Virus record (IMG/VR): IMGVR_UViG_3300018411_000037
Span: 1-43,510 of that record
Direction: 5' to 3' (one strand)
DNA: 43,510 bases
Source: a virus
The notes beneath the pieces were generated by a model, which worked only from the letters and a program-made list of their open reading frames with translations, did no database searches and had not been told where the DNA came from. The translations under genes and the position numbers were made by a program. Numbering within the stretch: position 1 is the stretch's first letter; every line of letters starts with the position of its first letter. Positions 16,141-41,485 of the stretch are shown piece by piece.

Positions 16141-16635
16141 ATGGATTATGTTATACCAGCCCTATTAAAGAAAACTATAACATTTAAAAGACTCAAGGCT
16201 AAAAATGTTACCGGTTATGAAATCTATGCCCAGTTCAAAGACGATACTTATGATTCCGGAATCCGGACTGAATTACTGGAAGTTGTTAAAAATCCAGACG
16301 TACCGGATGCATATATTAAAAATGTTGAATTGCCTTATAATGAGAACGCAACATGGAGTCTTCCGGACGATGCTTATCTGGACAGAGACCATCAGTTTAG
16401 ATTATTCATGAATGACTTTATCTTGAGTTCAATGTGTTACAAATACAATCGGCTTAGTAAACTTATTACATTGGATACGGTAGCAAAAGACTATAGCATC
16501 AATGACAAAATTACAATGGATTATTACCAAGACCTAATCATAAGAAGCTATATGTTAGAAAAAGATTGCGAGATAACAATTAAGCCAATCTTTACAGAAA
16601 GCTATTCTTATGGAACACATAGCGTTATAGTATAA
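16141..16635 (+). CDS. Small tail-cluster protein, unknown
   Basis: A 164-residue protein that I do not recognise. The pattern is beta-rich (TITFKRLKAKNVTGYEIYAQ, CEITIKPIFTES). There is no signal peptide, membrane segment or catalytic motif. A GGAGG site at 16131-16135 precedes the ATG, and it is followed after 15 bases by the frameshifted gene. Its likely role is virion assembly or fibre attachment, from its place inside the fibre operon. Confidence 0.45.
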   Translation: MDYVIPALLKKTITFKRLKAKNVTGYEIYAQFKDDTYDSGIRTELLEVVKNPDVPDAYIKNVELPYNENATWSLPDDAYLDRDHQFRLFMNDFILSSMCYKYNRLSKLITLDTVAKDYSINDKITMDYYQDLIIRSYMLEKDCEITIKPIFTESYSYGTHSVIV

Positions 16636-16650
16636 AAAAGGAGAAAAGAC

Positions 16651-17698
16651 ATGGCACTTAATGAGTACGATAGCAAACGGCAATATACTCAATACAAGAG
16701 ACACGTAAACGAATCAAGTGAAAGAGTTAATGCAGAAACAGTTAATCAACTACAAACCGATATCAATACCCAGCAACAAGATACAAATCAGGTTAAAGAT
16801 ACCGCTTTTGAAGAACGGGTCTATACGATTTTTAATAATAATTTATATACAAATGCAATGTTTATTGATTATTATAAAACCGGAGAATATCTAAATGTCG
16901 CAGAGTCTAATGCTGTCGTCATCGACTTTGAAAAATCATTAGTAACCATTGACAGTAAATCGACTAAAGGAACTGCCATCAGTACAGAGATATTTAGTGT
17001 ACATGGTGTCGAAATCGAAACCAATGACTTCTTTTTGATTACAAATGACTACACTCCTATCGGAGCAGATATCAAATACTTTTTAGAAACTCATACCGGA
17101 GAACGCTGGCCAATTGTGCCAAATGCGTTAAAGCTGCCATTGCATTTAAGCGAAAACATTGCTTATGGATTTAAGGTCGTAACTGAATTAACAGCAAATG
17201 CTCTTGGAGAAAAGCCTTACGTTAATGGGTATGCTCTTTTATACTGGGATAAGCAAGTTGAATTAAACTACGGGATGACCAACCCAGACTTAGCCCGGTT
17301 CCCCTAGCATAGAAATAGGCTCCGATGATGGGCTAACAATAATCATCAGAGACAGAGCACAAGAAGACAAAGTTGTTAAAGTTCTTCAGCCGCTTAATAC
17401 GGTTGACCTTACTTATGACTTTGCCGGAAATGACGGACGCCTTGCATTTGTTAAGACCAACTGGCCAGATTATGAAGGGGTTGAGGTTAACCAGATAAAT
17501 AAATTATATTATGGCGATTATCTTAACAGTTTAGGCGAAACAGAAAATGTGCTACAAAAAGTTCAACAATCAACAGATATCGGAACAGAAAGATTGGAAA
17601 ATGTTCAGGTTATAAGAAATTGCAAACAATGCCCAGTCTATGATGAACTTGATGCTGAAATTACCCAACTTAAATCGGAAGGAGATGGAACTATATGA
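16651..17698 (+). CDS. Tail/fibre protein made by a candidate +1 ribosomal frameshift (348 residues)
   Basis: The zero frame runs from ATG 16651 (AAGGAG upstream) through 218 codons to a TAG at 17305-17307. The +1 frame is then open from AGC 17306 for 130 codons to TGA 17696-17698. It contains no ATG and no ribosome site of its own. It begins SIEIGSDDGLTIIIRDRAQ, reads as ordinary protein, and its stop overlaps the next ATG as ATGA, the normal coupling in this operon. Joining the two at CCC gives one 348-residue protein ending with a coiled-coil-like CPVYDELDAEITQLKSE. Residues 1-45 (KRQYTQYKRHVNESSERVNAE) form a helical N-terminus. The protein family is unknown, and the tail role comes from context. 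A base-calling error in the CCCC run, or a real mutation, would look the same. Confidence 0.7.
17299..17308 (+). other. Candidate programmed +1 frameshift site (TTC CCC TAG C)
   Basis: The P-site proline codon CCC (17302-17304) is followed directly by a TAG stop. Slipping one base forward re-pairs the tRNA on CCT and places AGC in the A site, which enters the long open +1 frame. Slow termination next to a CCC-T slip is the arrangement known from Listeria phage PSA tail genes. A 7-bp inverted repeat (TTAGCCC 17290-17296, GGGCTAA 17330-17336) brackets the site and might help. No internal Shine-Dalgarno stimulator of the RF2 type is visible. Confidence 0.6.
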
Positions 17699-18906
17699 GA
17701 ATGGAAGAGTTATCTGACAGCAGGTATATAAAAACAACAGATACCGTCGAGAAGTATTTACTAAATCTTGTCGAACAATATTTTACTAATCACAATGTCG
17801 CCTCTGTAACATCTCGTGAGTATATTATTAAAAAAGCTATTGAACGAATGAAAGAAGAGCTTTCTTATGACGATATCGGCGTTCTTAGTATAACCCTTCC
17901 AAGCGGAGAACGAAGAACTGGCGCAATTACAATTACACTTGAAGACTTACACGGTGAGCCTTTGATTACTCCTAAACTGTCTGCTTTCAATGTTCCATTT
18001 GGAAATGAACAGAATACAGCTTGCGAAGGAAATGACCCACGCTTGTTCGATGAAAGAATGCCAGTTGCTCATAATCATACAATCGAAAACATTATCGGAC
18101 TCGAAGGAAAGCTTAGCACTATCTTTGGGAAAATGGAACGAATCAATGGACTTAGTCATGAACATAGTAATAAAGACGTTCTTGATATGCTTGTTTATAC
18201 TGGCGACAAATCAATTATTGATTTAACACTTATCGATACACTCGAAGACAAAGTCAATCTAATCGTGCAACAAATTCGAACGGAAATAGCAGACTACAAA
18301 AATACGATTGACACAAAGATAGCAGGAGTCAATTCCGAAATAGTTGTCGTTAAAGGTCAGATTAATGACCTTCGAGATTTCATCTTACAAAAGAACCAAG
18401 AGTATTTAATACTTGCGAATCAATATACTGATACAGAGATATCTGAACAAAACGCTTATATCCAGCAAATTATCGGAACCCTTATGACCCGAGACAAGAT
18501 TCAGGATATAATTGATATGGCAAAAGATACTTATACGCTAGCTGGGTCAATGCGTTTTTCAATTGCTTCAGTTATAGATGTTGGCGGCAGCTTAAAAGAA
18601 TATACAAGTGAAAAAGATATTAGCTCAAACATTCTTTCAGAGCTAACGGTTCGAAATACGAATTTAAGTAATTGCCAAATCGAAGCTTTAATCGAATATC
18701 AAAGCGGCGGTCAGGCTGTATATGCTCCTTTGCCGTACATTACATTTAAAGATAATGGAACGGATGGAGCGATTCAAGTAAGCACAGTCTCTGCCAACAA
18801 TAAAATAATTTTTAAGTTAACAACGGCGGCTGGGGTCATTGCTCCTGAAATACAATCGGCTTTTATTATATATAACGTATATTCAAAAGAAGAAATAGCG
18901 ATATAG
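17695..18906 (+). CDS. Tail-fibre protein A of a paralogous pair
   Basis: A 403-residue protein. The N-terminus (VEKYLLNLVEQYF) and the segment NTACEGNDPRLFDERMPVAH, then HTIENIIGLEGKL (about residues 107-143), match the 'ACEGNDPRL...HNH' motif common in phage fibre proteins. Residues about 180-270 are coiled-coil-like (KVNLIVQQIRTEIADYKNT, GQINDLRDFILQKNQ), as expected for a trimeric fibre shaft. The C-terminus (about 285-403) is a beta-rich tip. It shares its N-terminal third and C-terminal tip pattern with the next gene but lacks that gene's large insert. The ATG overlaps the stop of the frameshifted gene as ATGA, so its expression should depend on ribosomes that have shifted frame. Confidence 0.7.
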   Translation: MRMEELSDSRYIKTTDTVEKYLLNLVEQYFTNHNVASVTSREYIIKKAIERMKEELSYDDIGVLSITLPSGERRTGAITITLEDLHGEPLITPKLSAFNVPFGNEQNTACEGNDPRLFDERMPVAHNHTIENIIGLEGKLSTIFGKMERINGLSHEHSNKDVLDMLVYTGDKSIIDLTLIDTLEDKVNLIVQQIRTEIADYKNTIDTKIAGVNSEIVVVKGQINDLRDFILQKNQEYLILANQYTDTEISEQNAYIQQIIGTLMTRDKIQDIIDMAKDTYTLAGSMRFSIASVIDVGGSLKEYTSEKDISSNILSELTVRNTNLSNCQIEALIEYQSGGQAVYAPLPYITFKDNGTDGAIQVSTVSANNKIIFKLTTAAGVIAPEIQSAFIIYNVYSKEEIAI

Positions 18907-21307: not shown

Positions 21308-23575
21308 TTGGAAACTTCTCTTGATTTAATAAAAGAAAAAATGATAACAAAAGTCATCGGCCAGTTAGAGAATATCCGGTATATGACTTCAAACGAAAGA
21401 ACGTTATACGAAGAAGACTTACTTAATAAAATAAAATTAAGAATGCTGGCCACAACGGTTCGTCATCAGGAAGATATGACGAACGCCGATGATTATAACC
21501 AGACAGCTTACGAGATATACTTAGATATCATTACAACGTTTGGGTATGTGAACGAGCTATACAATACAATTAACAGTCATCAACAATTAAACGAAAGTAT
21601 TGTTAATACATTGTACTCTAATATCGCTACGTTAAACGACAAACTTGACGAATATGAATCGGTTATCGGTACGGCTGGCTCTCCGGATTGTTTTGTTGAA
21701 GGATTCCGGACTCAAAATAACCAAGAGCCTGACCCGGTTTATTACACAGAACGGTATGGCGAACGAATGCCGTTAGCGACATATGCAAATTTTAATTCCG
21801 AACAGGAAAATCTTACACTCGGATATACCCGACAGCAGAATGTCATGGTTTATAAGTCAGGCGTTCAGCTTGGTAAGATAAGCCTGACTAAACAATACGG
21901 CGCTGGTTTTATTAAAGCCTATAATTCCGAAGCCAAGTTAGAGAATGCCATTGATACTTCGGCCAGTAGTTACTGGTCAGAGACTATTTTGTCCGATGCT
22001 GAAATGAAAATTGTTGGCGAAAAATACAGCAATGCCGATGGCATCAAAGAAGAAAACCGGTCTTTCTATGACTTACCCCGGGGTGCGCTATGTGAAATAT
22101 GCTTAACTTTCGAAGCCCTGGCTAAAATCAATGAAGTGGTTTTACGGCCATTTGGAAACTTTCCGATTGATATCATAGCTATCCGGTATTCGCTTTCAGA
22201 TGACGAAGATGACGATACCTATGATGTCGTCTGCCCGGACAATCAAACCAATGACTGGCTTAGTAACAAAAGCATTAGCCAAGAATATGCTTTTCATTTT
22301 CCTCAGGTTACCTGTAAGCGGTTATATATTTTAATTAATCAGCTGCATTGTGTAAAAAAGACATTTATGATTTCATGTAACCAGATGTTTAAAAATGAAC
22401 TTTGGTTTAATGCAACATATAATAGCGAAGATGATGCTAAAATGGAGAACTCTTCTGTTTTTGCACCATTATATTTAGACCGGGCTGCGGACAATGCCGT
22501 CTGGAAGTATGTCAATAACAAAATGAACACAAACAAGATGTTGGACATCAATGATTTATTAATTAACAACAGCAATAAGTATTTGCCAGTTACTAAGTAT
22601 CAATATAATTATGGCTTTTATAACATTGCTCCTAACTTTGTTGAGTTTCAAAAAGCAGGTATTTATGTTTCACAGGAAATCGAAGTTGATGGCCCAATTG
22701 ATACGATTAAATTATATTCCGAAGAAGAACACTTTACGACAACCGATGGATACATTGCAACTGATATAGAGTTTTACGTGACGACAAAAAAGAATCCATC
22801 TTATCAGGACTGGAAGCCAATTTGTCCATACAATAAAGATTATATTTATAAAGAGTTAATCCAACTCGATTATTCATATTGTTATTTAAGACATACCGCT
22901 GTTTGCGGAAACGTCATAAGTTATAATATAAAAGGTGAGCAGCAAGTTACCATGATACGACCGGTGTTATATTTAAACGACATTGTTATGACTGAAGATG
23001 CGGATTATATCTTGCGATACGACAAAGATAATAATGTCATCGCTGTTGAAATTTCAAACATTGACCACTTTGCTGTTTATACAATTTCGTATCAGCCTGT
23101 TGATTCTTCTAAGGAACTAAGCTTAATCAGTAACGATGAACCTATTCCATCAACCTCGTTTGAAGAGATAATGGGGGACGGGACAGCGTGTTATGAGCTA
23201 AGCAGCTATCCATTTTATAGTCGGCTAACGCCGGAGCTGACCTCTAGTTATCTTAAAATAATCGATATCACAGAAAATAAAGTATTCAACCAAACAAACC
23301 AAGAAACAAGCGCTATTCAATGCGTTACGAACAAAGAGAACCCAGCGGAAAGCTATAAAAACTTCGTTGCAAATAGTAATAAAATACAGTATTATACTAA
23401 TGGAAGGTATATTTATTTCAATCAACCCATCAGTCCTTTACAGAAAATGGAATTCAATTACCCCAGTTTTGATTGCAAGGTTCGTTTAAAGATTATCTTG
23501 CGGCGTAACACCAAGAGAGATAGCTGGATAACTCCAGTGCTCAATAAATACCGGCTAGAGTTTACTACAATCTAA
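21308..23575 (+). CDS. Fibre-cluster protein 1 of a four-member paralogue family, discoidin-like
   Basis: A 755-residue virion protein. Residues about 1-120 are helical and coiled-coil-like (KMITKVIGQLENIRYMTSNE, YSNIATLNDKLDEYES). Residues about 215-360 resemble a galactose-binding/discoidin (F5/8C-type) sandwich: AIDTSASSYWSE, then LCEICLTFEALAKINEVVLR, then PIDIIAIRYSLSDD. A later module, IYVSQEIEVDGPIDTIKLYS with a Trp-rich end (QDWKPI), recurs in the genes at 23931 and 25696. The final domain ends with YRLEFTT. The start is TTG at 21308, seven bases after GAGGG. The family role (multi-domain sugar-binding tail protein) is inference from fold patterns. Confidence 0.55.
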   Translation: METSLDLIKEKMITKVIGQLENIRYMTSNERTLYEEDLLNKIKLRMLATTVRHQEDMTNADDYNQTAYEIYLDIITTFGYVNELYNTINSHQQLNESIVNTLYSNIATLNDKLDEYESVIGTAGSPDCFVEGFRTQNNQEPDPVYYTERYGERMPLATYANFNSEQENLTLGYTRQQNVMVYKSGVQLGKISLTKQYGAGFIKAYNSEAKLENAIDTSASSYWSETILSDAEMKIVGEKYSNADGIKEENRSFYDLPRGALCEICLTFEALAKINEVVLRPFGNFPIDIIAIRYSLSDDEDDDTYDVVCPDNQTNDWLSNKSISQEYAFHFPQVTCKRLYILINQLHCVKKTFMISCNQMFKNELWFNATYNSEDDAKMENSSVFAPLYLDRAADNAVWKYVNNKMNTNKMLDINDLLINNSNKYLPVTKYQYNYGFYNIAPNFVEFQKAGIYVSQEIEVDGPIDTIKLYSEEEHFTTTDGYIATDIEFYVTTKKNPSYQDWKPICPYNKDYIYKELIQLDYSYCYLRHTAVCGNVISYNIKGEQQVTMIRPVLYLNDIVMTEDADYILRYDKDNNVIAVEISNIDHFAVYTISYQPVDSSKELSLISNDEPIPSTSFEEIMGDGTACYELSSYPFYSRLTPELTSSYLKIIDITENKVFNQTNQETSAIQCVTNKENPAESYKNFVANSNKIQYYTNGRYIYFNQPISPLQKMEFNYPSFDCKVRLKIILRRNTKRDSWITPVLNKYRLEFTTI

Positions 23576-33908: not shown

Positions 33909-35045
33909 ATGAGCAATCAGATAAAAGTTAATGACCAAGAAACCCAACAGACTATTACCATCAACGAACCGAATTTTTACGGCCCCGCTATTCCCGCCCA
34001 AGACATTGCTTACTCTGATTCAAGCTGCTCTATCCAAATAGGAAGCACAAATCCAGAAACGATAAACTTTCATTATCCCTGTAAACCACAAGAGGATTAT
34101 GAGCTGGCCATGTGGAACACACTCGATTCATTTGAAACGAACGCATGGCAAACTAAGAATGTCGGCATTAAAACTGGGTTCGACTATGTGGACAAAGCTT
34201 TTGAAGGTGGATTATATCCCGGGTTTATTATTATCGGCGGGGATAGTAACTTAGGGAAAACCGCCTTTCTTACACAGCTGGCATGGGGGATTGTCCAAAA
34301 CAATCAAAATGTTTATGTTATGGATTTATCCCTTGATGATGCGATGCCAGATAAACTGGCCAGGGTAGCAGCTTGCTCTGGCCAATTAATTATCAATGCT
34401 GTTAAAACACCTCTTAATTATGTTGATTACCCATTAATGTTGATTCGACGCAAAAATGCTATTTTAAATTTAAGGTCGCATGTTGGAAAATACCGAGCAT
34501 ATGATTCTACGTTCAGTACATTTGTCGAAGACATTGAGAAAGAAATCGAAGAAAAGCTAATCATGTTTGATTCACAAGGTATCGATAAACAATTAGTGGT
34601 CTGCATTGATAACTTTCATGATTTAAATATTTCATCCCAGCCAGGATTACAGGATAAAGCAAAATTTGACTTCTTGGCTCAGTGGTGTTCCGACATGGCC
34701 ATTAAACATAATATTGTTATGATTTGTTCAGCAGAACTTAAAAAGCTTAATGGTAATCGACGCCCAATGCTTGATGATTTACGAGAGTCTGTAAAGATTA
34801 AATACGAGGCCAAGGCGGTCTTACTTGTTTATAATGAAGTGCATTATAAAGGAGACTCGTCAGATATCTTCTACATGAAGAGTGGCTCACCGTTTAAGCA
34901 GCCGGTCTTTGAAGTTCACTTTGCTAAAAACAAATTCGGAACATACAAAGGCAGAGCCTTCTATGAGTTTTATCCTGAAATGGCTTATATGAAAGAATGT
35001 GCGCCTCAAGTACAGAAAACATATTCCCAGATTATATTCGGATAA
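33909..35045 (+). CDS. DnaB-type replicative helicase (RecA-fold core)
   Basis: A 378-residue hexameric-helicase-like ATPase. The Walker A motif GGDSNLGKTA is at about residues 110-119, and the Walker B-like segment VVCIDNFHDL at about 229-238. A downstream sensor-like region (MICSAELKKL, PMLDDLRESVKIKYEAKAVL) is arranged as in superfamily 4 (DnaB/KaiC) proteins. Residues 1-80 do not look like the canonical DnaB N-terminal helical domain, so it is a helicase core with a divergent front end. Next to primase and dUTPase, it probably unwinds DNA at the phage fork. AAGGAGC lies upstream of ATG 33909. Confidence 0.75.
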   Translation: MSNQIKVNDQETQQTITINEPNFYGPAIPAQDIAYSDSSCSIQIGSTNPETINFHYPCKPQEDYELAMWNTLDSFETNAWQTKNVGIKTGFDYVDKAFEGGLYPGFIIIGGDSNLGKTAFLTQLAWGIVQNNQNVYVMDLSLDDAMPDKLARVAACSGQLIINAVKTPLNYVDYPLMLIRRKNAILNLRSHVGKYRAYDSTFSTFVEDIEKEIEEKLIMFDSQGIDKQLVVCIDNFHDLNISSQPGLQDKAKFDFLAQWCSDMAIKHNIVMICSAELKKLNGNRRPMLDDLRESVKIKYEAKAVLLVYNEVHYKGDSSDIFYMKSGSPFKQPVFEVHFAKNKFGTYKGRAFYEFYPEMAYMKECAPQVQKTYSQIIFG

Positions 35046-35056
35046 AGGAGGGCAAC

Positions 35057-35458
35057 TTGGAAGACAAGGATATTATAAATAAGACGTTTAATGAACTAAC
35101 AATCTTAAGACACATCGGCAAGCCTGACACTGAAAAATACAGAACATGGAATACTGGACAATGGGTAGAATGTAGATGCAGTTGTGGAGAAATTACCGAA
35201 CTTCCATTATATGGGGTTGTTAATGAATATATTAAAAGCTGCGGCTGTCTCCGGAAAGAAAAAGCAGCTTTGACTCTTGAAGAAATCAAAAAGAATAACC
35301 CAACACCAACGGCTATTTATCTTACTTTTAAAGATAAAACCTTAAATATAAGCGACTGGTCAAAAGAAACTGGGATACCACGGTCTACGATTATGTATCG
35401 TATCTCAAGAGACTTACCGGTAGATAAAATATTAGAGAGGAGGAACGAGAATGAGTAA
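35057..35458 (+). CDS. Zinc-ribbon and helix-turn-helix DNA-binding protein
   Basis: A 133-residue protein. I take TTG 35057 as the start because AAAGGAGGG lies just upstream. The same frame is open further upstream, but that part lies inside the helicase gene. Residues about 8-75 contain NKTFNELTILRHIGK followed by a CxC...CGC zinc cluster (VECRCSCGEITELP, then IKSCGCLRKE). This module is common in phage HNH/AP2-type proteins. The C-terminus (LNISDWSKETGIPRSTIMYR) is a helix-turn-helix like those attached to homing endonucleases. No nuclease residues are evident. It may be a regulator or the DNA-binding remnant of a homing endonuclease. It overlaps the next gene by eight bases. Confidence 0.6.
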   Translation: MEDKDIINKTFNELTILRHIGKPDTEKYRTWNTGQWVECRCSCGEITELPLYGVVNEYIKSCGCLRKEKAALTLEEIKKNNPTPTAIYLTFKDKTLNISDWSKETGIPRSTIMYRISRDLPVDKILERRNENE

Positions 35459-35865: not shown

Positions 35866-36231
35866 ATGAGTAATTTAGAACCAACAAAAGAAGAGCAGCG
35901 AAATGCACACAAAAACTTATTAAATTATATTGAAAATCTTTATGTAACTAAAAACAATGCCTACGGTAATTCGTTTAGTCGTCTTTACGAAGAAGTAGGC
36001 ATTCTATCAGCAGCGACATCAATTGGACATAAGTATCATCGATTTATTAACCTGGCAAAAAATGGTGAAGAAAACTTTGGCTATGAAGGCCTGAGAGATA
36101 CCCTAGTCGATATGGCTAATTATTGCTTATTGGCCGTTATGGAATTAGATAAACAAGAAAAAAGAAAAACACAGTCCATCAGTATAGCCAATGACACAGG
36201 AAAGCAGGTACAGGACAATGAAGGTTGTTAA
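35866..36231 (+). CDS. DUF1599-like (MazG-type all-alpha) nucleotide-associated protein
   Basis: A 121-residue protein. Its central part, VTKNNAYGNSFSRLYEEVG, then GHKYHRFINLAKN, then LRDTLVDMANYCLLAVMEL, matches the DUF1599 pattern: N/D-x-x-YG-x-SF, K-x-x-R, then a D-x-x-x-D-x-A-NY helix. This family belongs to the all-alpha NTP pyrophosphatase fold and is frequent in phages near nucleotide-metabolism genes. A role in dNTP pool control is inferred. ATG 35866 has AAGGAGG upstream. The C-terminus overlaps the nrdD start by 14 bases. Confidence 0.7.
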   Translation: MSNLEPTKEEQRNAHKNLLNYIENLYVTKNNAYGNSFSRLYEEVGILSAATSIGHKYHRFINLAKNGEENFGYEGLRDTLVDMANYCLLAVMELDKQEKRKTQSISIANDTGKQVQDNEGC

Positions 36232-37951
36232 AAGAAATGGCGAAGTAACCGAGTTTGACGAAGAAAAGATTTACAATGCAATATTAAAGGCAATGAAATT
36301 TGGCTCTGGTATTGTTAAAGCCAATATCGCATATACAATTTCTGAGGATATTAAGAAAGCTGTGACTGCTTCCGGAAAAGAACAAATTGATATTACCGAA
36401 ATCGAAACAATGGTTTTTGAAATGTTGATTGCCAAAAAACAAAAGATTACCGCCAAAGCCTACGAAGCTTACCGAGCCGTTCAGGAATTTAAGAGAGACG
36501 TAACAGAATTAGATACTGTTATCGAAAGCATCGTTGACGGCTCAAATAAAGACATCATCAATGAGAATTCAAATAAGAACTCAACCATTGCTTCGACTCA
36601 AAGAGATTTAATCGCTGGGGAATACTCAAAAGATTACAGTCGCCGGGTTTTACTTCCAAGTAATATTTTACATGCTCATGATGAAGGTATTATTCATATG
36701 CATGACTTAGATTACTTTATCGAAAAAATTCACAACTGTTTTGGTGGGAATATGCGATTTGTCACAAGTGACGGAGTTAAGGCTTTTAATGATTGTCATG
36801 ACAATCAACAAGTAGAAGTAATCGACAAAAACGGAACATGGCGACCAGCTATTGTTAAAAATTACGGAAAACAAAAAATGCAAATCGTTACTTTAACAAG
36901 TGGCCGGACTAATAAAAAAATCAAATGCACTCCTGGCCATCGCTGGTTTTTAAAAGATGGTTCTGTTACAACAAACCTCAAACAAGGAGACCGACTTTCT
37001 TTACTACAAGAAACGCAAAATCTTGATAACGTAAACCCAAAAGCATTTTGTCTTGGTTTTGTTTTAGGAGATGGAACGGATTATTGTAAAAAAACATCTG
37101 AAGGAGTTCAGGTTAGATTATGTAATAACAAAACTCAATATCTTGATATGTTCATTAAAGAAGGATACGCAATTTCTTCTCAACAATTTGGTAACGGAGA
37201 TATTATTTTAACCAAAAGTGGCAATGCTTTTAAACAGAAATTTTTATCCAGTCACGCTTGGAACTTTATGTCTAAAAATGATTTAATCAGTTTGTTTCTT
37301 GGATACTATGCCGCTGATGGGAATAAAGACCGAAATGGAATCTCTACTGCTAATGCCGACCTTGCTCAAATGATTAGAGACATTTCGTCTATTGCTGGAT
37401 ACTTTATTGCAAGTGAAAACTTCAAAGTAAGAAGCACTAACTTTAAAGAAGATGCCGAATTATATAACTTTAGATTTTTAAAATCTCAACCATCAAATCG
37501 AAATTGGATTGTTAAAGATATTAAAAGAGTTGATAATTCTAAATATGATGCATGGTGCATAGAAGAGCCTGTCACTAACTCATTCACTCTTGATGGCGGA
37601 ATTGTTACAGGAAACTGCTGCCTTGTTAATCTTGATGATATGCTGCAAAACGGGACGGTTATCAACCGTAAGCTTATTGAGAAACCTCGTTCTTTACAGA
37701 CAGCTTGTACAGTTGCCACTCAAATCGTCCAGCAAGTTGCTAACGGTCAATATGGTGGCCAGACAATTAGTTTAGCTCATTTAGCACCGTTTGTCAGAAT
37801 CAGTCATGATAAACTAATTGCGAAATATCTTGATAGAGGACTTGACCAGATATCAGCAGAGATATTTGCAGCAGAAGATTTAAAAGAAGAAGTCCGGGCC
37901 GGAATGCAGACCATTCAGTACCAAATAAATACTTTTTCAACATGTAACGGT
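36218..37951 (+). CDS. nrdD: Anaerobic ribonucleoside-triphosphate reductase NrdD, exon 1 (contains intein 1)
   Basis: First part of the class III ribonucleotide reductase, which makes dNTPs from NTPs using a glycyl radical and works only without oxygen. The N-terminal ATP-cone (MKVVKRNGEVTEFDEEKIYN) covers about residues 1-90 and mediates dATP/ATP regulation. The extein then reads to GIIHMHDLDYFIEKIHN, is interrupted by the 293-residue intein 1, and resumes with CCLVNLDDMLQNG. That Cys becomes residue 174 of the spliced protein and aligns with the conserved active-site Cys (E. coli Cys175, T4 Cys79). The exon ends at ...TCNG (37951) at a group I intron. Unspliced RNA would stop at TAA 37958-37960. 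The full coding sequence is join(36218..37951, 39095..41485). ATG 36218 is preferred to 36191 because the ATP-cone normally begins there. Confidence 0.95.
36737..37615 (+). mobile_element. Intein 1 in NrdD, with LAGLIDADG endonuclease
   Basis: A 293-residue in-frame insertion flanked by the extein residues HN and CCLVNL. It begins with Cys (CFGGNMRFVTSDG) and has a splicing block B of the TxxH type (CTPGHRWF). It ends with a block F/G (YDAWCIEEPVTNSFTLDGG...VTGN) whose last residue is Asn, and the +1 residue is Cys. The penultimate residue is Gly instead of the usual His, a known but less common variant. Two LAGLIDADG-like motifs, LGFVLGDGT (about 37051-37077) and FLGYYAADGN (about 37291-37320), both keep the acidic residue, so the homing endonuclease may be active. 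Confidence 0.9.
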
Positions 37952-39094
37952 TGGTGGTAAAGCTTGGCCGTTTTAAAACCTTGTTAACCTAACTTATAGG
38001 GTGTGTATATAGAATCATCTATATATGCTAACGGTATCAGCAAAATAAGACTCCTCATTGAGAGAAAACCAATAATGAGGCTTTAGAAAAAGACGAATAA
38101 GCTGACTAAGAAAGCTTGAGCCTGAAATGGCAAGATAGTAATACCGTGTCGAAACTTTATAAATAAATACTTTCGCTACTTAGGTTGAAAATTCAGCGTA
38201 TATATTATCTTAGAGGTGATATTATGTTTGGATATATATATGAAACAAAAAACTTAATCAACGGAAGAATTTATATAGGTAAAAAAGAACAAAGCAATTA
38301 TGATAAAAATTATTACGGAAGCGGAACAATCATTAAACAAGCAATTAAGAAGTACGGAAAAACTAATTTTTCAAATACAATGATTGACACCGCTGATACG
38401 CTTGAAGAACTAAACCAAAAAGAGCTGTATTATGTAAAATCCTGCAAAGAAATGTATGGAGACTTATGCTATAACATAGCCGAAGGTGGCACTGGAGGTA
38501 ACGCACTGTATTATATGTCAGAAGAGCAAAAACAAGAGTTCAAAGATAAAATGACAATAATTAATACTAAGCGTAGCCGGTCTAAAGAATCAAGAGAAAA
38601 CATAGGGAAAAAAGTTCGCCAATACTATGAAGACCATCCAGAGCAAAAAATCAAACAAGCTATCAAAATAAAAGCTTACTGGACAGAAGAAAGAAGAAAA
38701 GAACATGGTGAAAAAATAAAAGCTAGGCCGCAAGAAGTAAAAGACAGAGCTGTCAGTTATAAACCATGTGCGTTTATCCTCAATGATATTTATAAAGAAT
38801 TTAAGTCTGTTGATGAATTAAGAATGTTTTTAAAAGAAGAATATAATTATAATCCAGACAGAAGAAGCTTTATGAAAATTATGTCCGATGGAGCAAAAGG
38901 AATACCGTATAAACCATTTCATAAGAATAAGTTCAAAGACCTATTTGGTATGATAATCTATCATATCAATAATAAAGAAGATGTATCGACTAGCTGTGAT
39001 GAGTTTAGCAGCGTAGGATAGGAGATAAGTACCTATTCCAAAAGCAAGGCCATAGTTATTATAACTATGGAAGATATAGTCAGTTGGAGCAACG
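37952..39094 (+). ncRNA. Group I self-splicing intron in nrdD
   Basis: An intron of 1143 bases between AACGGT (exon end, T 37951) and CAAGCT (exon start, 39095). The boundaries are supported by guide pairing. Exon AACGGU pairs with the internal guide GCCGUU (37967-37972) through a terminal U-G pair (P1). The first six bases of exon 2, CAAGCU, pair with AGCUUG (37961-37966) as P10. The last intron base is G (39094). TGACTA (38103-38108) and TAGTCA (39077-39082) can form P7, the latter inside AAGATATAGTC as in T-even-like phage introns. GTTG-GAG-CAAC follows as a short P9. CCTCATT/AATGAGG (38053-38059, 38084-38090) is another stem. An endonuclease gene occupies the peripheral loop between the P7 strands. 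Splicing joins ...TCNG to QAPF.... Confidence 0.92.
38224..39021 (+). CDS. GIY-YIG homing endonuclease inside the nrdD intron
   Basis: A 265-residue intron-encoded endonuclease that would spread the intron by cutting intron-less nrdD alleles. The GIY-YIG pair is visible as GYIYETKNLINGRIYIGKK at the N-terminus, followed by YYGSGTIIKQAIKKYGKTNF and the catalytic-region segment ELNQKELYYVKS (with Glu). A GG-rich turn (NIAEGGTGGNA) closes the nuclease domain. The C-terminal half is basic and helical and contains a NUMOD3-like segment (SRSKESRENIGKKVRQYYED), which binds the long recognition site. AGAGGTGAT at 38212-38220 supports the ATG at 38224. Codon use is more AT-rich than in neighbouring host-like genes, in keeping with a mobile origin. 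Confidence 0.9.
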   Translation: MFGYIYETKNLINGRIYIGKKEQSNYDKNYYGSGTIIKQAIKKYGKTNFSNTMIDTADTLEELNQKELYYVKSCKEMYGDLCYNIAEGGTGGNALYYMSEEQKQEFKDKMTIINTKRSRSKESRENIGKKVRQYYEDHPEQKIKQAIKIKAYWTEERRKEHGEKIKARPQEVKDRAVSYKPCAFILNDIYKEFKSVDELRMFLKEEYNYNPDRRSFMKIMSDGAKGIPYKPFHKNKFKDLFGMIIYHINNKEDVSTSCDEFSSVG

Positions 39095-41485
39095 CAAGCT
39101 CCATTTTTATCGATTTATATGCATATTAGCGAAAACCCTGAATACGAAACTGAAACAGCTATGCTTATCGAAGAAGCATTACGCCAGCGCATCATTGGAA
39201 TGAAAAACGAAGCTGGTGTTTATATTACTCCCGCCTTCCCTAAATTACTTTACGTGACAGATGAAAACAATATCCATCCGGATTCTCCTTATTATTATTT
39301 AACCGAACTGGCTGCCGAGTGCGTGTCAAAACGGATGTTACCTGATTTTATTTCTGCCAAGAAAATGCGTGAAGAACATGATGGTGAGGTATTCCCGTGT
39401 ATGGGATGTGTTGAAGAAAACGAAATTATTACTTATAAGTATTGCGGCAAGCTTTATGTCGAATCATTTATCCGCATGTGGAATCGCTTAGGATTAGATT
39501 TCAAAATAGAAAATCAATTCTCAGAAGAAAATCCTAACGATAATCCCAATCTATTTATGAACCTTTCTGGTGTTACCATTTATGACAGCGGAAGAAATGA
39601 CTTTGTTATAACAGAAAAGATTATCAAAAATGTAAATAAAAACAATTGGATGAAGATTGAATTGTCGGGCGGCAGACTTGTTACCTGCACAGAAGACCAT
39701 CCTTTCCCAACAGCAAGAGGGCGAGTTTTGGCTGGAGATTTAAAAATAGACGATATCATCACAATCAACAAAGGGCAATACGTCGAAGAAGGCGTTATTG
39801 ATTCTTGGGATAGCGACCTTGCCTGGGCCTATGGTGTGTTGCTGCATAAAGCAAATTTATCAGAGACCGTAACAGTTTCACTACCTAGAGTTGGCAGACT
39901 ACATACCTCACTAATTGCTATTATTAATTATCATTACGATACTTACTGTGACACAAAAAAGATTGACGATTGTCAAGTCATTACGTTTAAATCTGAAAAA
40001 TTACAACAAGATTTAATTGCTCTTTTTGAAGGCGTTAAAAGAAGTGACCGACATATCCCAAATGAAGTTTTCTCAATGAGTAGAGAGACAAGAGTGGAAA
40101 TGCTGGCCGGTATTATTGATGCAAGCGGTCGTCTTTGTACGGATAACAACGAAAACAAGGTAACCATTAAAACAGCAAACAAAGAAATGGCTTTGCAAAT
40201 AATGGCTTTAATGCAGTCACTTGATATGCCTGCTTCGATTAAAGAAAAAGAGATGGCTAATTTTAAAACTCCAAAATATAAAGTCAGCTGCATCCCTTCG
40301 AAAGAATTACTTGAATCAATGATATGCTTGAATATTAAAGGTTCTCTTACTAATTTTGCCTTTAATAACGGACTACCTTCTAGTAGTAAACCTAAAACAA
40401 TCAAGGACGGAAGAGTTATTTCGATTAAAAATACTTATGTTGAAAGTTATAGCTATGACGTAGAAACCGAGTCTGACCATTTTGATGTTAGCGGTATTTA
40501 TAGTCATAACTGTCGCAGTTTCTTAGGATTATACAAAGACGAAAACGACAAATACAAATGGTATGGTCGTTTTAATCAAGGCGTCTGTACTCTTAATCTC
40601 GTAGACGTTGGGTTATCAGCAGAAAAAGATATCGAAATGTTCTGGGCCATCCTAGAAGAACGTTTAGAGCTTTGTTATCAGGCTCTCATGATTCGTCATG
40701 AGCGATTAAAAGATACCGATGTTGGCGTGTCTCCTATTCATTGGAAGTATGGCGCTTTAGCAAGAACCGAAAAAGATAATTTCAATGACTTGTTATATGG
40801 CGGGTATTCGAGTATCTCACTTGGATATGCCGGACTTTATGAGTGCGTCCTTTCTTTAATCGGAGAAAGTCATACGAGTGAAAATGGCCAGAAGCTGGCT
40901 CTTGAAATCATGGAACGACTTGGTAAGAAATGTGCTATCTGGAAAGAAAAAACCAATATCGGTTTTGCTTTATATGGAACACCGTTAGAGTCAACAACAT
41001 TTAAGCTGGCCAAGTGTTTAAAGAAACGATTCGGTATTATCGAAGGCATTACTGACCATGATTATGTTACGAATTCATATCATGTTAATGTTCAGGAAGA
41101 TATCAGCGCTGAAGATAAATTAAAATTTGAATCTCAGTTCCAGAGCATCTCTTCCGGAGGATTCATTTCTTATATCGAAACCTGTAACTTATCCGGAAAC
41201 ATCCCAGCGGTTATCGATATTATTAAATACATGTACGAAAATATTAAATACGCTGAAATGAATGGCAAGTTTGATTATTGCCAAGAGTGTGGATTCAGTG
41301 GTGAAATACTTTTAGACGAACATAACGAATGGTATTGTCCAAATTGTGGCAACACAAACCACGAGACTATGAACGTGGCCCGAAGAACGTGCGGCTACAT
41401 CGGAGATAATTTCTGGAACGACGGCAGAACCGAAGAGATAGGAGACAGAATAGTTCATGTTGATAACAAAGATTTAGTTATTTAA
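39095..41485 (+). CDS. nrdD: NrdD, exon 2 (contains intein 2 and the glycyl radical site)
   Basis: C-terminal part of the anaerobic reductase. After splicing it starts QAPFLSIYMHISEN and runs to ...EHDGEVFPCMG. The 368-residue intein 2 interrupts it, and the extein resumes with CRSFLGLYKDE, whose first Cys would be residue 390, aligning with the thiyl-radical Cys (E. coli Cys384, T4 Cys290). Near the end are a zinc site with two CxxC pairs (CQECGFSG, CPNCGN) and the glycyl radical loop RRTCGYIGDN. The radical Gly is at 41393-41395, residue 684 of 713 in the spliced protein (E. coli Gly681 of 712). The exteins of both exons thus give a full-length, apparently functional NrdD. No independent start is expected, although an ATG occurs at 39119. 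Confidence 0.95.
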   Translation, partial: QAPFLSIYMHISENPEYETETAMLIEEALRQRIIGMKNEAGVYITPAFPKLLYVTDENNIHPDSPYYYLTELAAECVSKRMLPDFISAKKMREEHDGEVFPCMGCVEENEIITYKYCGKLYVESFIRMWNRLGLDFKIENQFSEENPNDNPNLFMNLSGVTIYDSGRNDFVITEKIIKNVNKNNWMKIELSGGRLVTCTEDHPFPTARGRVLAGDLKIDDIITINKGQYVEEGVIDSWDSDLAWAYGVLLHKANLSETVTVSLPRVGRLHTSLIAIINYHYDTYCDTKKIDDCQVITFKSEKLQQDLIALFEGVKRSDRHIPNEVFSMSRETRVEMLAGIIDASGRLCTDNNENKVTIKTANKEMALQIMALMQSLDMPASIKEKEMANFKTPKYKVSCIPSKELLESMICLNIKGSLTNFAFNNGLPSSSKPKTIKDGRVISIKNTYVESYSYDVETESDHFDVSGIYSHNCRSFLGLYKDENDKYKWYGRFNQGVCTLNLVDVGLSAEKDIEMFWAILEERLELCYQALMIRHERLKDTDVGVSPIHWKYGALARTEKDNFNDLLYGGYSSISLGYAGLYECVLSLIGESHTSENGQKLALEIMERLGKKCAIWKEKTNIGFALYGTPLESTTFKLAKCLKKRFGIIEGITDHDYVTNSYHVNVQEDISAEDKLKFESQFQSISSGGFISYIETCNLSGNIPAVIDIIKYMYENIKYAEMNGKFDYCQECGFSGEILLDEHNEWYCPNCGNTNHETMNVARRTCGYIGDNFWNDGRTEEIGDRIVHVDNKDLVI
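39407..40510 (+). mobile_element. Intein 2 in NrdD, endonuclease probably dead
   Basis: A 368-residue insertion between ...FPCMG and CRSFLG. It begins CVEENEIITYKYCGKLY, has block B RLVTCTEDHPFPTARG with TxxH, and ends SYDVETESDHFDVSGIYSHN with the standard His-Asn pair and +1 Cys, so protein splicing should work. The LAGLIDADG region is degraded. The first motif reads WAYGVLLHKANLS, with no acidic residue where one is needed. The second reads LAGIIDASGR, where Ser replaces the catalytic Asp. The nuclease is therefore expected to be inactive, unlike that of intein 1. Confidence 0.92.

What the first reader, a model, noticed from the sequence alone, without database searches (positions are those of the whole stretch)
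16651..17698. Candidate programmed +1 frameshift at CCC-TAG in a tail gene
Seen directly: a 218-codon frame ends at TAG, and the +1 frame immediately after is open for 130 codons with no ATG. It ends in ATGA overlap with the next gene. The junction TTC CCC TAG C lets the proline tRNA slip from CCC to CCT. Known precedent: Listeria phage PSA uses +1 slips at CCC-T sites in structural genes to make two C-terminal variants. Inference: the virion would carry both a 218-residue and a 348-residue form. Expression of the fibre gene at 17695 (ATGA coupling) would depend on the fraction of shifted ribosomes. A 7-bp inverted repeat flanks the slip site. A single-base miscall in the CCCC run would mimic this exactly.
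Basis: partly seen in the sequence, partly recalled or inferred. Interest (0 to 1): 0.78.

Follow-up and report, generated by a model that had tools for sequence, protein, structure and literature searches.

The report
Conserved +1 ribosomal frameshift, phage tail
In a family of roughly 210-kb bacterial viruses, one tail-region gene is kept in two reading frames joined at a rare CCC codon just before a stop, which almost certainly makes some ribosomes skip one base and produce a longer second version of the protein, a trick known from other phages but not reported for this gene family in the papers I could search.

Summary
ORF 16651-17307 (218 codons) ends TTC CCC TAG; a +1-frame ORF continues from 17306 to 17698 (130 codons) and overlaps the next gene by ATGA. 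Five related ~210-kb phage contigs (55-71% identical to the window over the joined protein) have the same break at the same residue: Arg-Phe-Pro, CCC, then a stop (TAG four times, TGA once), with the conserved C-terminal part in the +1 frame. Synonymous sites are saturated between these phages, yet CCC is invariant although it is a rare proline codon (2-12% of Pro). In about 1,020 ORFs of the five relatives only six end in CCC-stop, and five are this gene. A miscalled CCCC run is rejected, because relatives have TTTCCC. In two relatives the shift interval is 11 nt. No conserved stem-loop, Shine-Dalgarno stimulator or 7-bp repeat was found, so the signal looks minimal: CCC + stop, possibly a Phe-Pro nascent end. 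Four of five relatives encode tRNA-Pro(UGG), an isoacceptor known to slip on CCC. Precedents are SPP1 gp17.1* (CCCUAA) and Listeria phage tsh genes (CCC-UGA). This is a new member of a known kind, in a probable baseplate/fibre protein. Both products in virions, and their ratio, are inferred.

The parts
16640..16643 (+). Shine-Dalgarno (GGAG) of the two-frame gene
   Evidence: sequence
16651..17307 (+). 0-frame ORF, 218 codons, ends Arg-Phe-Pro CCC TAG; short product
   Evidence: the same 218/219-codon ORF in five related contigs; jelly-roll domain 69-198 predicted
17299..17307 (+). slip site TTC CCC TAG: P-site tRNA-Pro moves from CCC (17302-17304) to CCT (17303-17305)
   Evidence: CCC-stop in all 6 phages (5x TAG, 1x TGA), CCC invariant at synonymous level; the shift interval is 14 nt in the window and 11 nt in two relatives
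17306..17698 (+). +1-frame continuation, 130 codons plus TGA; C-terminal extension giving a 348-residue long product
   Evidence: open and conserved in all 6 (119-143 codons), purifying selection in the +1 frame
17290..17336 (.). 7-bp inverted repeat TTAGCCC/GGGCTAA around the slip site; not conserved, judged incidental
   Evidence: present; absent in relatives; no conserved structure
17680..17684 (+). Shine-Dalgarno (AGGAG) of the next gene
   Evidence: sequence
17695..18906 (+). next gene, 403 aa, tail-fibre-like protein; start overlaps the +1 stop (ATGA)
   Evidence: ATGA overlap in 5 of 6 phages
16141..16635 (+). upstream neighbour, 164 aa, conserved in the two relatives aligned

Best explanation
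The gene at 16651-17698 is one gene in two frames, expressed by programmed +1 ribosomal frameshifting. Ribosomes translate 218 codons to ...Arg-Phe-Pro with CCC in the P site and a stop codon in the A site. Most probably terminate and release the 218-residue protein. A fraction, held up because release is slow and because tRNA-Pro (mainly the UGG isoacceptor) pairs weakly with CCC, re-pair the tRNA one base forward on CCU, read AGC as the next codon, and go on for 130 codons to make a 348-residue protein with a C-terminal extension. Shown by comparison: the two-frame architecture, the invariant CCC-stop, the narrow shift interval, and selection on the +1 part. Inferred: that slippage happens at a useful rate, that tRNA-Pro(UGG) is the slipping tRNA, that both proteins are assembled into the baseplate/tail-fibre region in a set ratio, and any coupling to the next gene.
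For: Six distinct phage contigs, all with the 0-frame ORF ending at the same residue, CCC TAG x5 and CCC TGA x1, then a conserved +1 ORF of 119-143 codons; none fused. Synonymous sites are saturated (pS 0.64-0.91) with pN 0.10-0.40 in both parts, yet CCC is invariant (15 of 15 sequence pairs identical against 5.2 expected), while nearby codons vary freely except an invariant GAC 5 codons and GAT 18 codons upstream. CCC is 2.3-7.5% of Pro codons in the five relatives and 11.6% in the window; of 1,023 ORFs in the relatives 6 end in CCC-stop and 5 are this gene. Upstream +1-frame stops confine the shift to 11 nt in two relatives and 14 nt in the window; a Phe-codon slip cannot explain the window, which has TTC CCC. 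Substitutions after the junction follow +1-frame codon positions. Four of five relatives encode tRNA-Pro(UGG), an isoacceptor shown to be slip-prone on CCC (PMC4519876). Phe-Pro-CCC-UGA shifts +1 at 15% in E. coli pheL and the Phe matters (PMC5009743); Arg-Phe-Pro is invariant here.
Against: No protein, ribosome-profiling or reporter data. No stimulatory RNA structure or Shine-Dalgarno stimulator was found, so efficiency could be low. A PHROG profile (phrog_28136, 283 positions) matches across the junction, so some database protein is continuous or annotated as joined; I could not locate its genome, and an in-frame homologue elsewhere is possible. One relative (G013) shows no tRNA-Pro gene, so a phage tRNA is not essential.
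Confidence: 0.92

Rival explanations
1. Sequencing or assembly error: one base too many in the CCCC run, the gene being really in one frame.
For: The window has CCCC, a short homopolymer, and is a metagenomic contig.
Against: Five other contigs from different metagenome datasets have the same frame break at the same residue with TTTCCC, not CCCC. The same error six times, always leaving CCC-stop, is not credible.
Confidence: 0.01
2. Two separate genes: the 218-aa gene and an independently started downstream gene, without frameshifting.
For: Stop and second ORF are adjacent; in two relatives an ATG lies 27 nt into the second part.
Against: In the window, L008 and L012 there is no start-like codon until 243-318 nt into the second part, and none of the listed starts has a convincing Shine-Dalgarno. 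Conservation of the +1 frame begins right at the junction (SVEIGSDDG...RDRA). CCC would have no reason to be invariant. One profile spans both halves.
Confidence: 0.03
3. The frameshift is real but the long protein is the only useful product; the short one is waste, or the shift is a regulatory check (as in release-factor-2 prfB or antizyme).
For: The C-terminal part is under strong purifying selection.
Against: No prfB-like upstream Shine-Dalgarno is apparent beside the slip codon, and the stop is UAG in five phages and UGA in one, so no single release factor is sensed. The 0-frame product holds a complete predicted jelly-roll domain ending about 20 residues before the stop. If only the long form were needed, a one-base change would fuse the frames, yet no fusion is seen in six divergent phages.
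Confidence: 0.2
4. Stop-codon readthrough or reassignment of TAG.
For: TAG is the stop in five of six.
Against: The 0 frame closes 5-6 codons after the stop in all six, the homologous sequence is in the +1 frame, and TAG is an ordinary stop in these genomes (23-60 of about 200 ORFs).
Confidence: 0.01

Closest known systems
Bacillus phage SPP1 gp17.1 / gp17.1* (+1 at CCCUAA)
   Same: CCC followed directly by a stop; CCC rare in phage and host; +1 slip to CCU; adds a C-terminal domain to a structural protein (PMC6316719)
   Different: SPP1 gene is the siphovirus tail-tube protein and products are measured at 3:1; here the gene is in the baseplate/fibre region of a large, probably contractile-tailed phage and products are not measured; no sequence relation tested
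Listeria phages PSA, A118, A500 tsh (+1 at AAA CCC_UGA)
   Same: CCC-stop slip site, CCC 5% of host proline codons, slip site directly 5' of the stop codon (PMC5009743)
   Different: major tail shaft protein; UGA not UAG; Lys not Phe before Pro
E. coli pheL CCC_UGA
   Same: Phe-Pro-CCC-stop, 15% +1 shifting, penultimate Phe matters (PMC5009743)
   Different: treated as incidental to attenuation, not conserved to make a product
prfB (release factor 2) +1 frameshift
   Same: +1 slip next to a stop codon (general knowledge)
   Different: needs an upstream Shine-Dalgarno and UGA and is autoregulatory; not the case here

Membership tests
+1 programmed frameshift at CCC-stop in phage structural genes (SPP1 17.1*, Listeria tsh) | 0-frame gene ends CCC followed by a stop codon | tested here: met
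   6 of 6 phages
+1 programmed frameshift at CCC-stop in phage structural genes (SPP1 17.1*, Listeria tsh) | +1 frame open and under protein-level selection downstream | tested here: met
   119-143 codons in all six; position-specific substitutions and low pN against saturated pS
+1 programmed frameshift at CCC-stop in phage structural genes (SPP1 17.1*, Listeria tsh) | CCC is a rare proline codon and is conserved | tested here: met
   2-12% of Pro codons; invariant in six; CCC-stop otherwise found once in about 1,020 ORFs
+1 programmed frameshift at CCC-stop in phage structural genes (SPP1 17.1*, Listeria tsh) | two products with common N-terminus, in a set ratio, in the virion | not testable with these tools
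   needs mass spectrometry or a reporter
+1 programmed frameshift at CCC-stop in phage structural genes (SPP1 17.1*, Listeria tsh) | gene encodes the major tail (tube/shaft) protein | tested here: inconclusive
   the 0-frame domain aligns best to a phi812 baseplate protein (Z 12.6, 138 residues) and the neighbours look like fibre/baseplate genes; the model is of middling confidence
+1 programmed frameshift at CCC-stop in phage structural genes (SPP1 17.1*, Listeria tsh) | extension is an Ig-like or FN3 domain | tested here: inconclusive
   the +1 part is predicted mostly beta with a C-terminal helix at low confidence (pLDDT 63), no clear fold match
prfB-type autoregulatory +1 frameshift | Shine-Dalgarno-like stimulator a few bases upstream of the slip codon | tested here: not met
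   no such conserved motif in the six aligned junctions
frameshift with downstream RNA stem-loop/pseudoknot stimulator | conserved, covarying structure 3' of the slip site | tested here: not met
   RNAalifold covariation term unfavourable; z-scores -1.8 to +1.3; pseudoknots not examined

The most novel reading that the evidence does not exclude
This lineage sets the ratio of two forms of a baseplate/fibre attachment protein with a minimal CCC-stop signal tuned by its own phage-encoded tRNA-Pro(UGG), so that shifting, and with it the ATGA-coupled fibre gene downstream, changes as phage tRNAs accumulate during infection.
Probability: 0.12. Interest if true: 0.7.

Novelty: new member of a known kind. 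Interest (0 to 1): 0.5.

Why it matters
It adds a well-conserved natural +1 frameshift site in a phage lineage and a virion region for which I found no report of one. The six natural variants, differing in nearly everything except CCC plus a stop, make a clean set for testing what a minimal +1 signal needs: the stop identity, the Phe-Pro end of the nascent chain, and the supply of tRNA-Pro(UGG). Automated annotation would split this gene in two and lose the long product.

Tried and rejected
Homopolymer miscall: rejected by relatives. TAG readthrough or reassignment: rejected by frames and stop usage. Separate downstream gene: rejected for lack of a conserved start. Stem-loop: RNAalifold and single folds gave nothing conserved. 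7-bp inverted repeat: not conserved. tRNA-Phe slip on UUU-C: possible in five but not in the window (UUC CCC). Searches for relatives in annotated phages and bacterial genomes gave none, so fused homologues could not be examined; distant relatives by neighbouring genes (Moorella phage MTATph1, Bacillus phage KLEB27-3) showed no detectable homologue (an equivalent profile search does detect both halves in the five relatives). The +1 half gave no usable fold match. Fold matches of the N-terminal half to lectin-like, carbohydrate-binding and insecticidal proteins reflect a common jelly-roll and are not read as function.

Full report
What was checked. The window is a 43.5-kb IMG/VR virus record. 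ORF 16651-17307 codes 218 residues and ends TTC CCC TAG; the +1 frame from 17306 is open for 130 codons to TGA 17696-17698, overlapping the ATG at 17695. Read with one +1 step at CCC-T it gives one 348-residue protein.

Relatives. A search with the joined protein found one relative, 71% identical over its whole length. Searches with profiles of this protein and of the next gene brought the total to six distinct phages: the window and contigs 3300024270_000009, 3300012983_000001, 3300010163_000003 (with a second copy, 003666), 3300032038_000003 and 3300023371_000067, the relatives being 208-218 kb long. All six have a 218- or 219-codon ORF ending ...Arg-Phe-Pro, codon CCC, then a stop: TAG in five, TGA in one. 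All six continue in the +1 frame for 119-143 codons with conserved sequence. None is fused. Only the window has CCCC; the five relatives have TTTCCC, so a homopolymer miscall cannot explain the break.

Why this is selection and not inheritance of an accident. Synonymous sites are saturated between these phages (pS 0.64-0.91) while pN is 0.10-0.40 in both the 0-frame and the +1-frame parts. Differences after the junction fall mostly on +1-frame third positions. In a 45-column stretch around the junction the slip codon is CCC in all six (15 of 15 pairs identical against 5.2 expected), and nothing else near it stands out except an invariant GAC five codons and an invariant GAT eighteen codons upstream. 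CCC makes up 2.3-7.5% of proline codons in the five relatives and 11.6% in the window. Of 1,023 ORFs of at least 80 codons in the five relatives, six end in CCC-stop and five of those are this gene; the sixth lies just before a terminator-like hairpin.

Where the shift happens. In two relatives an upstream stop in the +1 frame leaves only GGTTTCCCTAG or GATTTCCCTAG as the place for the shift; in the window CCCGGTTCCCCTAG. A slip of tRNA-Phe from UUU to UUC is possible in five but not in the window (TTC CCC). A slip of tRNA-Pro from CCC to CCU fits all six. Since every stop begins with U, having TGA in place of TAG keeps the slip possible.

What helps the shift. The signal appears minimal: CCC plus a stop, perhaps helped by the invariant Arg-Phe-Pro end of the nascent chain. 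E. coli pheL, also Phe-Pro-CCC-stop, shifts at 15% and the Phe is known to matter (PMC5009743). Four of five relatives encode tRNA-Pro(UGG), the isoacceptor that pairs weakly with CCC and slips (PMC4519876). That the phage tRNA is the slipping one is inference; one relative (G013) shows none.

What the protein is. The surrounding genes include a baseplate wedge homologue and several virion-protein families, pointing to a contractile-tailed phage. The 0-frame product is predicted to have a long N-terminal helix and a jelly-roll domain (residues 69-198, blocks of pLDDT 48-94, most above 70), best aligned to a phi812 baseplate protein (Z 12.6, rmsd 3.2, 138 residues). The stop comes about 20 residues after that domain, so the short form could stand alone. 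The +1 part is predicted mostly beta with a C-terminal helix, at low confidence and without a match. A baseplate or fibre-attachment protein with an optional C-terminal extension is the best reading; it is not shown.

The next gene. The ATGA overlap exists in five of six, but the next gene has its own AGGAG in the window and one relative lacks the overlap. Coupling is possible, dependence unproven.

Known or new. SPP1 gp17.1* (CCCUAA, 3:1 ratio in tails; PMC6316719) and Listeria tsh (CCC-UGA; PMC5009743) use the same mechanism in siphovirus tail proteins. This is a new member of that kind in a different virion region and phage lineage. Weak points: no expression data, and a PHROG profile that spans the junction (phrog_28136) whose source genome could not be found; a fused homologue may exist there.

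Noticed in passing
36191-41485: The anaerobic ribonucleotide reductase gene (nrdD) looks split: N-terminal part 36191-37960, a homing endonuclease ORF 38185-39021, C-terminal part 39119-41485. An intron or other mobile insertion is likely; Rfam gives no match in the window at gathering threshold.
   Followed up: partly
34997-35458: HNH endonuclease overlapping the end of the DnaB-like helicase gene 33909-35045.
   Followed up: no
L050:15686-16061 (contig 3300024270_000009): The related phage encodes a tmRNA (tag ANRPMLAAA) beside 12 tRNAs. A phage tmRNA in a genome with a pause at Pro-stop is curious.
   Followed up: no
L072-L082 (contig 3300012983_000001): ARAGORN reports a tRNA with a four-base anticodon (ttag), i.e. 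an enlarged anticodon loop, in a phage that also has two tRNA-Pro(UGG) genes; possibly a misprediction.
   Followed up: partly
window, all ORFs: The window uses CCC for 11.6% of proline codons against 2-7% in the relatives, suggesting a different host or mutational bias.
   Followed up: no
L004:11631-15104 (Bacillus phage KLEB27-3): The homologue of the 755-aa virion protein at window 21308-23575 is spread over three consecutive ORFs in this phage.
   Followed up: no
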